64,000 nucleotides of DNA. Source: Methylotenera versatilis 79. Its GTDB lineage: Bacteria; Pseudomonadota; Gammaproteobacteria; Burkholderiales; Methylophilaceae. Both the position numbers and the translations under genes were made by a program. Of the stretch, positions 15,916-18,078 are shown piece after piece; position 1 is the first letter of the stretch; each line of letters opens with the position of its first letter. The stretch lies in the NCBI RefSeq assembly GCF_000384375.1, contig NZ_ARVX01000001.1:248001-312000 (forward strand), written 5' to 3'. The notes under the pieces were generated by a model that searched no databases, had not been told where the DNA came from, and saw nothing but the letters and a program-made list of their open reading frames with translations.

Positions 15916-16104
15916 ATGTCTGACGTTAAAGAAATAGAAATTACTGCAAAAGACCTGCCCTTGCACTGCCCTACTAAAGAGGTAGCGCTTTGGGCAAGTC
16001 ATCCACGTGTGTTTTTAGATATCGCGGCAACGGGGCAAGTCGCTTGCCCTTACTGTGGCACTAAATATCGGCTCAAAGCTGGCGAAGTGATTTCGCATCA
16101 CTAA
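15916..16104 (+). CDS. Zinc-finger domain protein (zf-CHCC)
   Basis: 62 residues. The ligands C18, H29, C44 and C47 (HCP...SHPRVFLD...CPYCG) form the zf-CHCC pattern, shared with the mitochondrial complex I subunit NDUFS6. Small stand-alone bacterial members are usual in betaproteobacteria, often next to ilvE as here. The protein is cytoplasmic and probably binds zinc. A function is not established; the complex I likeness does not prove a role there. Confidence 0.9.
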   Translation: MSDVKEIEITAKDLPLHCPTKEVALWASHPRVFLDIAATGQVACPYCGTKYRLKAGEVISHH

Positions 16105-16150
16105 ACCATAATTAAACTTACATAATCAAGCTAACTCAACATCACGCTTT

Positions 16151-17545
16151 TTGAAAATCAATCCCCTGCAAGAAGATACTTTAAGTCTGCTTAAAGCAGG
16201 CAAACTAATCGGTAGCAAGCGCCTTAAACTCAGCTGCGGATTAACCCAGTTTCCAGTAGAAATTTTCACACTGGCCGACACCTTAGAAATACTCGACTTA
16301 TCCGGCAATGCACTCAATTCCTTACCAGACGATTTAAATAAGCTGCATAAACTGCGGATTCTGTTTTGCTCATCCAACCAATTTACACATGTGCCTGAAG
16401 TATTAGGGCGATGCGAAAATTTGAGCATGATTGGCTTTAAGGCCAATAAAATCAAAGCGTTTTCAAACTCCGCAATACCTACTGCAACACTACGCTGGTT
16501 AATCTTAACGGATAACGCACTCACCAAATTACCAGTTGCGATTGGCGATTGCCAGCACATGCAAAAGCTAATGCTGGCTGGCAACCAACTGAGCGAATTA
16601 CCAGAAACTCTAGCTAATTGTCGAAAATTAGAATTGCTAAGAATCTCGGCTAATCGGTTTGAATCATTACCGGAATGGTTATTGGATTTACCCAAACTAA
16701 GCTGGCTGGCGTATGCAGGCAATCCGTTTAGCGACAGAATAGAGGAACATTTAATCGCTCAGCATGATATTCCACAAGTCGATTGGAACGACCTTGAGAT
16801 ACAGCAACTATTGGGTGAAGGCGCGTCAGGGCTTATTTATCAAGCTCAATTGCAAGTTAAGCAACCTCAAATGAGCGTTCGTCAAACGAGTGATGTTGCA
16901 GTCAAAATGTTTAAAGCAGATTTAACCAGTGATGGCTTGCCGCGCTGTGAAATTCATGCCGCAACACTTGCTGGTCAACACCCTAATTTATTGGGCATGT
17001 GCGGCGTTGTTGCGCATCACCCAAATGAACAGGCTGGAATGGTGATGCCATTAATGGATGCAGATTTAACGGTATTGGCAAACCCACCCAGCTTTGAATC
17101 TTGCAGCCGCGATGTATATGCAAATGACACAAAATTTGACCTAAAAAAAGTGTTAAGTATTGCGCACAGCGTTGCTTCTGCTGTCGCGCATTTGCATGCG
17201 AACAGGATGACGCACGGCGATTTATATGCGCATAATATATTGAGCAACCCGCATAGCAATGCTGAATCCAGCACGCTATTAAGTGATTTCGGCGCTGCTT
17301 CATTTTTGCCGCAAGATAATCCTAAGCAATCTGAGCAACTTCAGCGTATTGAATCGCATGCGTTTGCTTGCTTGCTGGAAGAATTACTTAATCGCATTGA
17401 AGACATCAATACTTTAAATAACGATATTAAACAAATACTTACCATTAAAAACCTTTGGCAGTTACAAAGAGAATGTGCACAAGAAACGAATGCGAGCAGA
17501 CCTTTGTTTGAGGCGATTGAAGCGAGAATAATGAGAGTACAGTGA
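16151..17545 (+). CDS. Leucine-rich repeat protein with C-terminal protein kinase domain
   Basis: 464 residues starting with TTG at 16151; no ATG is available in frame near the repeats. Residues about 20-195 hold seven or so leucine-rich repeats (LEILDLSGNALNSLP, LRWLILTDNALTKLP, MQKLMLAGNQLSELP). Residues about 218-464 are a kinase domain: glycine loop GEGASG (222-227), ATP lysine K252, catalytic loop HGDLYAHN (355-362; HGD rather than HRD), and DFG at 379-381. All key catalytic residues are present, so activity is plausible. There is no signal peptide or membrane helix. The eukaryote-like layout occurs in scattered proteobacteria; targets are unknown. Confidence 0.9.
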   Translation: MKINPLQEDTLSLLKAGKLIGSKRLKLSCGLTQFPVEIFTLADTLEILDLSGNALNSLPDDLNKLHKLRILFCSSNQFTHVPEVLGRCENLSMIGFKANKIKAFSNSAIPTATLRWLILTDNALTKLPVAIGDCQHMQKLMLAGNQLSELPETLANCRKLELLRISANRFESLPEWLLDLPKLSWLAYAGNPFSDRIEEHLIAQHDIPQVDWNDLEIQQLLGEGASGLIYQAQLQVKQPQMSVRQTSDVAVKMFKADLTSDGLPRCEIHAATLAGQHPNLLGMCGVVAHHPNEQAGMVMPLMDADLTVLANPPSFESCSRDVYANDTKFDLKKVLSIAHSVASAVAHLHANRMTHGDLYAHNILSNPHSNAESSTLLSDFGAASFLPQDNPKQSEQLQRIESHAFACLLEELLNRIEDINTLNNDIKQILTIKNLWQLQRECAQETNASRPLFEAIEARIMRVQ

Positions 17546-17630: not shown

Positions 17631-17664
17631 AAAAGCTAATGCACTTTTACGAGCATTAGCTTTT
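17631..17664. terminator. Intrinsic terminator after the LRR-kinase gene
   Basis: Perfect 12-bp stem AAAAGCTAATGC/GCATTAGCTTTT with a 10-base loop. A-rich on the left and T-rich on the right, so it could end transcription in both directions. Confidence 0.8.
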
Positions 17665-17748: not shown

Positions 17749-17907
17749 TTAGTTATTTTTTTCTTCGCTTGCTTTATTTTTGATAGCTGCACCACCTTTT
17801 TCAATATCTTTACCCGCACCTTCTACAGTATTACAGCCAGAAATCGCAGCCATTGTGCCAGCTAAAAACAAAATAGCAAATAAGGACGTAAATGTTTTTT
17901 TAATCAT
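17749..17907 (-). CDS. Entericidin A/B-family small lipoprotein
   Basis: 52 residues from the ATG at 17907, chosen over the longer open frame because GGAGG lies seven bases upstream and the protein then starts with a normal signal peptide. The lipobox is ISGC (Cys25), followed by NTVEGAGKDIEKGGAAIKN, the entericidin signature. Entericidins are small envelope lipoproteins; in E. coli EcnA and EcnB form an antidote/toxin pair tied to stationary phase. Only one member is present here, so a toxin-antidote role cannot be assumed. Confidence 0.9.
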   Translation of the reverse strand: MIKKTFTSLFAILFLAGTMAAISGCNTVEGAGKDIEKGGAAIKNKASEEKNN

Positions 17908-18078
17908 GGTAAACCTCCAAAAAAAGTACGAGCAATCATAAAAGTAAAATAAATTAGAAGTGAGTAGCAATCCTCTGCTAAGCCTTCTTGCGAGCATTGT
18001 GGCGTGTAATAAAAAGCAACTCTGTGCGATAACGCACAGAGCAATTCTAAGTTATTCAGTAACTAAATAATATGACGA

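What the first reader, a model, noticed from the sequence alone, without database searches (positions are those of the whole stretch)
16151..17545. Leucine-rich repeat plus active-looking protein kinase in one cytoplasmic protein
The architecture is receptor-kinase-like but lacks a membrane segment. The ATP lysine, HGD catalytic loop, Asn and DFG are all present, so it is probably active. The HGD variant and TTG start are unusual. It could be a signalling switch in which the LRR part binds a protein partner. No phosphatase or partner gene is adjacent.
Basis: partly seen in the sequence, partly recalled or inferred. Interest (0 to 1): 0.5.

Follow-up and report, generated by a model that had tools for sequence, protein, structure and literature searches.

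The report
Stand-alone bacterial leucine-rich-repeat protein kinase
This is a real gene for a soluble bacterial protein that joins a protein-binding leucine-rich-repeat half to a kinase half; it belongs to a scattered family in Proteobacteria that already has a name but no known function, and its binding half is better conserved than its enzyme half.

Summary
Window 16151-17545 (+) encodes a 464-aa soluble protein: six full 23-residue leucine-rich repeats with partial ones at both ends, then a protein-kinase-like domain. It is not a one-off fusion: full-length relatives occur in 11 of 60 genomes of the family, 5 of 369 of the class sample and 50 of 398 of the phylum sample (own genome included each time), one per genome. 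RefSeq already names such proteins 'leucine-rich repeat-containing protein kinase family protein'. Observed here: (1) identity to the window is higher in the LRR than in the kinase in 54 of 54 comparisons, and its strand (concave) positions are almost as fixed as its scaffold; (2) catalytic residues are invariant in 55 of 55, but the activation segment is short and lacks APE in 55 of 55, with invariant TSDG and CxRD motifs; (3) the gene behaves as a single accessory unit: 10 of 10 examined relatives without it keep the flanking genes, with no remnant between. Best reading: a catalytically competent kinase directed by its LRR to one conserved, nearly universal partner. Partner and activity are untested. 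Known kind, moderate interest.

The parts
16151..17545 (+). LRR-kinase gene, 464 aa, TTG start
   Evidence: several near relatives have GTG or ATG starts at about the same aligned place (L018, L019, L024, L025)
16214..16750 (+). LRR half (residues about 22-200): N-terminal partial repeat, six full 23-residue repeats starting at residues 45, 68, 91, 114, 137, 160, and a last partial one at 183
   Evidence: Pfam LRR_8/LRR_4/LRR_14; repeat table; AlphaFold2 gives an LRR-like strand series with block pLDDT 59-87 for residues 11-180
16793..17542 (+). Protein-kinase-like domain (residues 215-464)
   Evidence: PK_Tyr_Ser-Thr 6.4e-18, Pkinase 7.1e-13; structure models of this part failed
16814..16831 (+). 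Glycine loop GEGASG (residues 222-227)
   Evidence: G222, G224, A225, S226, G227 in 55 of 55
16904..16906 (+). ATP lysine K252
   Evidence: 55 of 55
16925..16936 (+). Family motif TSDG (residues 259-262), just before the presumed alphaC glutamate E267 (16949-16951)
   Evidence: T, S, D, G and E267 each 55 of 55
17102..17113 (+). Family motif C-x-R-D (C318, R320, D321)
   Evidence: each 55 of 55
17213..17236 (+). Catalytic loop H-G-D-L-Y-A-H-N (355-362)
   Evidence: H, G, D, Y, H, N each 55 of 55; L358 47 of 55; A360 38 and G 17 of 55
17285..17293 (+). DFG (379-381)
   Evidence: D and G 55 of 55; F 46 of 55
17351..17362 (+). E-S-H-A (401-404), at the place of the usual F-helix D-x-W-S
   Evidence: position 401 E 49, D 6 of 55; A404 55 of 55; no APE between DFG and here in 55 of 55
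15916..16104 (+). Upstream 62-aa zinc-finger-like ORF; with ilvE it marks the left side of the site; not part of the module
17631..17664 (.). 12-nt perfect inverted repeat with 10 nt between the arms, after the gene (possible terminator)
   Evidence: not scored as a terminator by the scan

Best explanation
It is a genuine, stand-alone, soluble kinase of an uncharacterised proteobacterial family. Shown by sequence: an LRR solenoid fused directly to a kinase-like domain that keeps all phosphotransfer residues but has a short activation segment without APE; an LRR whose strand positions are nearly fixed; a gene that comes and goes as a single unit without a recognisable partner gene. Inferred: the concave face docks one conserved protein that most recipients have (a core cell component), and the kinase, which has no ordinary activation loop to be switched, phosphorylates that docked protein or a neighbour of it. 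Specificity would then come from LRR docking instead of a P+1 loop, and control from the availability of the partner.
For: Catalytic residues and glycine loop 55 of 55. Identity to the window is higher in the LRR than in the kinase in 54 of 54 (means 0.602 and 0.476); mean entropy 0.60 bits at strand positions 3/5/7/8, 0.51 at scaffold positions, 2.08 at the rest, Mann-Whitney p 5.5e-9 (41 of 55 sequences, under 70% identity). D379 to E401 is 20-24 residues, and no APE, in 55 of 55. A search with the kinase half alone found 52 of 398 genomes: the 50 already found at full length, and two fragments, neither an intact kinase. The 15 plasmid records found with the kinase half are the same 15 that match the whole protein. 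Gene families shared by three or more of 38 neighbourhoods outside Methylophilaceae are only common ones. Empty site in 10 of 10.
Against: No partner was found and no activity measured. The LRR's lower change is not matched by its dN/dS: dN is lower in the LRR in 7 of 7 pairs, but LRR dN/dS is below the kinase's in only 2 of the 5 pairs where both can be computed and slightly or clearly above it in 3. The strand positions were named from general LRR knowledge after I had seen the list of conserved residues, and no other LRR family was run as a control, so packing may explain part of the pattern. Models of the kinase failed. 10 of 55 members have fewer than 60 residues from D379 to the end, leaving little C-lobe. 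A gene that moves alone also fits defence.
Confidence: 0.42

Rival explanations
1. Intramolecular control: the conserved concave face holds the kinase domain itself in an off state, and a ligand releases it (an NLR-like or receptor-like switch).
For: Short linker: the last partial repeat begins at residue 183 and the glycine loop at 222. No intact kinase of this type without the LRR was seen. Conserved strand positions.
Against: The kinase half is less conserved than the LRR in 54 of 54, whereas a self-interface should hold both, though only in part of the surface. No model of the pair (most of the kinase part under pLDDT 50).
Confidence: 0.2
2. Single-gene anti-phage defence kinase: the LRR recognises a conserved invader protein and the kinase then phosphorylates a host target and stops growth.
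For: Patchy presence and single-gene site. PADLOC models match the kinase half: mad6 in 35 of 35 members of A2, three PD-T4-6 models in 35 of 35. One copy, on a Vitreoscilla plasmid, lies by an RtcR-type CARF regulator and a type I restriction enzyme.
Against: In the window protein all listed PADLOC matches lie in the kinase half, none in the LRR. Of 10 selected nearby genes at nine other loci, 7 have no PADLOC match at 1e-5; the other three are an RhlE-type RNA helicase, a thiopurine methyltransferase and a sensor histidine kinase relative, which match defence models in part. Five genes around it in the window: 0 matches. No full-length match in 50,697 phage records; one weak LRR-only match in the IMG/VR scan. 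The presumed sensing face is conserved.
Confidence: 0.2
3. Small-molecule or atypical kinase (Kdo/Bud32/APH-like) that uses the kinase fold on a non-protein substrate, with the LRR as a scaffold.
For: HGD catalytic loop and missing APE are as I recall them from such kinases; Pfam Kdo matches 31 of 35 members and passes its cut-off in the window protein (28.8 against 21.3 bits).
Against: PK_Tyr_Ser-Thr and Pkinase match 35 of 35, and score higher in the window protein (65.4 and 49 bits). The F-helix A (55 of 55) and the R-P pair near the end (R 44, P 47 of 55) are kept.
Confidence: 0.13
4. Injected effector: the LRR halves of XopAC, XopAE, XopL and SlrP match.
For: NCBIfam effector models match, best 3.8e-22.
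Against: All far below their cut-offs (78.6 against 450 bits for the best), and the listed stretches lie in the LRR. A carrier is Methylotenera, which I recall as a free-living methylotroph.
Confidence: 0.03

Closest known systems
'Leucine-rich repeat-containing protein kinase family protein' (RefSeq name, e.g. WP_089418300.1 of Vitreoscilla filiformis)
   Same: Same order of domains and similarity over nearly the whole length (44.4% over 95% of the query; annotation).
   Different: No essential difference seen; the window protein is a member. My paper searches found no described function for it.
LRR-containing Ser/Thr/Tyr kinase of Pseudomonas aeruginosa (gi|9948555), Krupa and Srinivasan 2005, PMC1262709
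   Same: A bacterial kinase with LRRs, mentioned in a domain survey (passage read).
   Different: I could not compare the sequences; that it is the same family is likely but untested.
Plant LRR receptor kinases
   Same: LRR followed by a kinase domain; PK_Tyr_Ser-Thr is the best kinase model.
   Different: No membrane segment, no APE, HGD where plant enzymes usually have HRD (recalled).
SHOC-2 and the Leptospira LRR proteins LIC11098, LIC12759, LIC10831
   Same: Among the best matches of the LRR half to solved structures.
   Different: The matches cover the LRR only; they have no kinase domain (recalled).
MAD6 and PD-T4-6 defence kinases
   Same: Their models match the kinase half.
   Different: The match covers part of the model only (mad6 positions 50-212 of 659). 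MAD6 belongs to a multi-gene system (recalled).

Membership tests
LRR-containing protein kinase family (RefSeq name) | LRR and kinase in one chain, similarity over the full length | tested here: met
LRR-containing protein kinase family (RefSeq name) | Motifs TSDG, CxRD, HGD-x-Y-x-H-N (drawn here from the 55 sequences, window included, so not an independent test) | tested here: met
Eukaryotic-type protein kinase (ePK/pknB group) | Lys, alphaC Glu, catalytic Asp, Asn, DFG Asp | tested here: met
   K252, E267, D357, N362, D379 in 55 of 55
Eukaryotic-type protein kinase (ePK/pknB group) | APE motif (named with W-[SA]-X-G and R280 as an ePK/pknB network in PMC1821047, passage read) | tested here: not met
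   0 of 55 have [AGST]PE between D379 and residue 415
Eukaryotic-type protein kinase (ePK/pknB group) | F-helix W-[SA]-X-G | tested here: not met
   W place: R 49, H 3, L 2, C 1 of 55; the following A is 55 of 55, the G 36 of 55
Eukaryotic-type protein kinase (ePK/pknB group) | I-helix arginine (R280 of PKA) | tested here: inconclusive
   R450 in 44 of 55, 9 gaps, 2 other; its equation with R280 rests on the R-P-x-F pattern only
LRR receptor kinase | Transmembrane segment between LRR and kinase | tested here: not met
   highest hydropathy mean 0.97
PD-T4-6 / MAD6 defence kinase | Match over the whole model | tested here: not met
   mad6: residues 212-395 on positions 50-212 of 659; best PD-T4-6: positions 9-164 of 292
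PD-T4-6 / MAD6 defence kinase | Protection from phage | not testable with these tools
   needs a bench test
Type III LRR effectors (XopAC, XopAE, XopL, SlrP) | Score over the curated cut-off | tested here: not met
   78.6 of 450, 52.7 of 600, 48.4 of 500, 37.9 of 1113 bits

The most novel reading that the evidence does not exclude
A mobile one-gene signalling unit: a kinase without activation-loop control, whose substrate choice is made by a near-invariant LRR face that reads a core protein shared by most Proteobacteria, so that a recipient genome is rewired by acquiring one gene.
Probability: 0.25. Interest if true: 0.65.

Novelty: new member of a known kind. Interest (0 to 1): 0.35.

Why it matters
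If the reading is right, one conserved LRR face and one kinase make a portable regulatory unit found in many Proteobacteria, and learning what the face binds would reveal a conserved phosphorylation target in core physiology. Even if not, the map of conserved strand residues and the TSDG/CxRD motifs give exact residues to test in a family that has a name but, in the papers I could search, no described function.

Tried and rejected
Plant-type receptor kinase: rejected, no membrane segment and no APE. Clade-specific fusion: rejected. Fixed operon or toxin-antitoxin partner: not found. Among 38 neighbourhoods and the window, families present in three or more loci were listed (E 1e-8, half the query covered). 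Most of them lie only in the seven Methylophilaceae loci that share the window's gene order. The others are LysR (8 loci), SDR (7) and two sensor-type groups (3 each), at varying distance; one same-order locus (L069) also holds two of the window's more distant neighbour families. Families in only two loci were not listed. The gene picker kept the LRR-kinase itself in only 34 of 39 loci (in the others an overlapping frame may have won), so neighbours there are less certain. Phage cargo: not supported. Type III effector: rejected. Transposon-borne: no direct repeats of 12 nt or more bracket the gene. Foreign base composition: GC 0.42-0.44 over the gene, within the range around it. Structure: AlphaFold2 on three sequences gave a usable LRR but no kinase fold; the kinase alone gave mean pLDDT 38, so no fold search was made. 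Literature: ten searches, seen as listings; none lists a functional study of this family by title or the start of its abstract. Only two papers were opened, for passages: PMC1262709 and PMC1821047.

Rows dropped before counts: the 55 aligned sequences hold 37 of the 50 phylum-search hits; of the other 13, 11 were not fetched, one is broken (G563) and one is cut by a contig end (G642, L054). L002 and the longer re-fetched stretches repeat copies already counted. Of 15 plasmid relatives 5 were used. The empty site was examined in 10 of the 49 family genomes without a match.

Mended on re-reading: number of full repeats, dN/dS values and their LRR/kinase split, number of loci behind the neighbour scan, the G496 fragment (new), and confidence of the best explanation lowered from 0.45 to 0.42 because of the dN/dS split.

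Full report
What is there. Window 16151-17545 (+) is an open frame of 464 residues beginning with TTG. Pfam's best LRR stretches lie within residues 44-186 and the kinase match on 215-396. The protein has no hydrophobic segment (maximum 19-residue mean 0.97). In its genome it holds both of the LRR_8 matches found and is one of three frames over the Pkinase cut-off. The antisense frame 16126-16722 was not studied. The genus is probably Methylotenera: a genome of the same genus (G050) has a contig of the same length, and the same gene, as a contig titled Methylotenera sp..

Start and expression. The TTG is the first start codon after the stop in this frame. Several near relatives have GTG or ATG at about the same aligned place (L018, L019, L024, L025); in others the mechanical first start lies elsewhere. 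The gene follows the 62-aa ORF 15916-16104 on the same strand after 46 bases; in four relatives (L018, L019, L022, L025) the gap to that ORF is 18-28 bases, which suggests read-through but does not show it. The promoter scan found no more sites than shuffles do (5 against a mean of 5.0).

Selection. Over the full length dN/dS was 0.14-0.18 in five pairs of family members and 0.35 in a sixth; in the seventh dS was saturated. By halves, dN was lower in the LRR in 7 of 7 pairs. The LRR's dN/dS was lower than the kinase's in 2 pairs, higher in 3 and not computable in 2, because dS too was lower in the LRR in the five computable pairs. So the greater conservation of the LRR is clear over long distances and less so in ratios between close pairs.

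Distribution. Matches at E up to 1e-20 occur in 11 of 60 genomes of the same family, at 1e-60 in 5 of 369 of the class sample, at 1e-50 in 50 of 398 of the phylum sample, the window's own genome included each time, always one per genome. In the family sample I count 1 of 21 genomes of at most 1.8 Mb with the gene and 10 of 39 larger ones (read off). Among 72,556 plasmid records 15 match over at least 80% of the protein; among 50,697 phage records none does. Genomes of other phyla were not searched with this protein.

The kinase goes with the LRR. A search with the kinase half alone found 52 of 398 genomes: the same 50 and two more. In one of the two (G680) LRR residues 9-68 lie next to residues 345-456, a broken copy. 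In the other (G496) the match starts just before the catalytic loop, 140 bases from a contig end, with a stop upstream in frame, so it is a remnant or an assembly end and cannot be judged. No intact kinase of this type without an LRR was seen.

History. In a tree of 54 sequences families mostly cluster (18 label changes, least possible 14, shuffled mean 36.8), but all Methylophilaceae copies and all copies of the two other families of the same order lie on different sides of a branch with support 96/95, and one family (f162) needs three changes. That fits mostly vertical descent with some transfer and many losses or gains. The tree's own warnings apply: one long row (L017) and eight rows of unusual composition. 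In seven Methylophilaceae neighbourhoods besides the window the gene lies among the same gene families; three other Methylophilaceae copies (L020, L023, L027) lie elsewhere. In 10 of 10 examined Methylophilaceae genomes without it (of 49), ilvE, the zinc-finger-like ORF and murI are present with no LRR-kinase match between them. In the nearest (G038, same genus, ilvE 98% identical) about 0.1 kb stands where the window has about 1.6 kb.

The binding half. Across 41 sequences under 70% identity, the seven scaffold positions of the repeats have mean entropy 0.51 bits, positions 3, 5, 7 and 8 have 0.60, position 2 has 0.67, the others 2.08 (Mann-Whitney p 5.5e-9 for 3/5/7/8 against the others). 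W116, K139, L162, R164, W185 and A187 are among the fixed ones. That these strand positions form the concave face is general knowledge of LRRs, not a result here, and I chose them. Identity to the window is higher in the LRR than in the kinase in 54 of 54 comparisons. A diversifying receptor would be expected to show the reverse. No other LRR family was run as a control.

The kinase half. G222, G224, G227, K252, E267, H355, G356, D357, N362, D379 and G381 are in 55 of 55, so phosphotransfer is plausible. The best Pfam kinase match stops at position 162 of 258. From D379 to E401 there are 20-24 residues in all 55, and no APE-like triplet in any. The W of the F helix is replaced, mostly by R, while the following A is fixed and a G often kept. 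PMC1821047 (passages read) describes APE, W-[SA]-X-G and R280 as one network of the ePK/pknB group; here the first is missing, the second altered, and the third perhaps kept in 44 of 55. Three family features are invariant: T259-S260-D261-G262 before the presumed alphaC glutamate, C318-x-R320-D321, and Y359 and H361 in the catalytic loop. I suggest that they do the work of the missing segment; this is inference. Both structure predictions were too poor in the kinase to test it.

Neighbours and function. Outside the seven syntenic Methylophilaceae loci, families shared by three or more neighbourhoods are common ones (LysR, SDR, sensor proteins) at varying distance. Ten selected nearby genes at nine other loci have as best NCBIfam relatives a phosphoglycolate/MupP phosphatase, a peptidylprolyl isomerase, an RhlE helicase, thiopurine methyltransferase, QueD, an alpha-glucosidase, GroEL, a hybrid histidine kinase, a LysR regulator and an RlmN-like methyltransferase, some under the models' cut-offs: ordinary genes. 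One exception, on a Vitreoscilla plasmid, lies next to an RtcR-type regulator and near a type I restriction gene. Since the gene moves alone and its presumed binding face hardly changes, its partner should be something most recipients already have. That is the main inference of this report.

What is known. RefSeq and one submitter name such proteins 'leucine-rich repeat-containing protein kinase family protein'. A 2005 survey mentions an LRR-containing kinase in Pseudomonas aeruginosa (PMC1262709, passage read). My ten paper searches listed no functional study. The finding is therefore an uncharacterised member of a known kind, with two observations (conserved strand face; missing APE with invariant motifs of its own) that make it testable.

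Noticed in passing
L060 (Vitreoscilla filiformis plasmid pVF1) 918-7335: The relative on this plasmid sits beside a sigma-54 regulator that matches RtcR-type CARF models, with a type I restriction enzyme next to that; the only defence-like neighbourhood noticed.
   Followed up: partly
L101 (G680) 2153-2607: Remnant of the gene in which residues 9-68 lie directly before 345-456: looks like an internal deletion.
   Followed up: partly
L102 (G563) 679-1979: Copy split into two pieces after residue 267, with one TGA inside; may be decay or a sequencing error.
   Followed up: no
L004, L005, L006, L008, L009, L010, L017, L063, L082, L083: Ten of 55 members have fewer than 60 residues from the DFG aspartate to the end, so most of the C-lobe seems absent.
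   Followed up: no
L028 and L065: In two f162 genomes the gene follows, on the same strand with gaps of 17 and 103 bases, a gene whose product is RlmN-like in L065 (scanned) and begins alike in L028 (not scanned).
   Followed up: no
window 17749-17997: A small ORF on the minus strand between the kinase gene and murI looks like an entericidin-type lipoprotein (name recalled); its C-terminal part is also at the empty site of G038.
   Followed up: no
G000:C1:717122-717895 and 458928-459623: Two other frames over the Pkinase cut-off in the same genome, with longer kinase matches than this one.
   Followed up: no
relatives: Synonymous divergence was lower in the LRR half than in the kinase half in the five pairs where both could be computed; cause unknown.
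   Followed up: no
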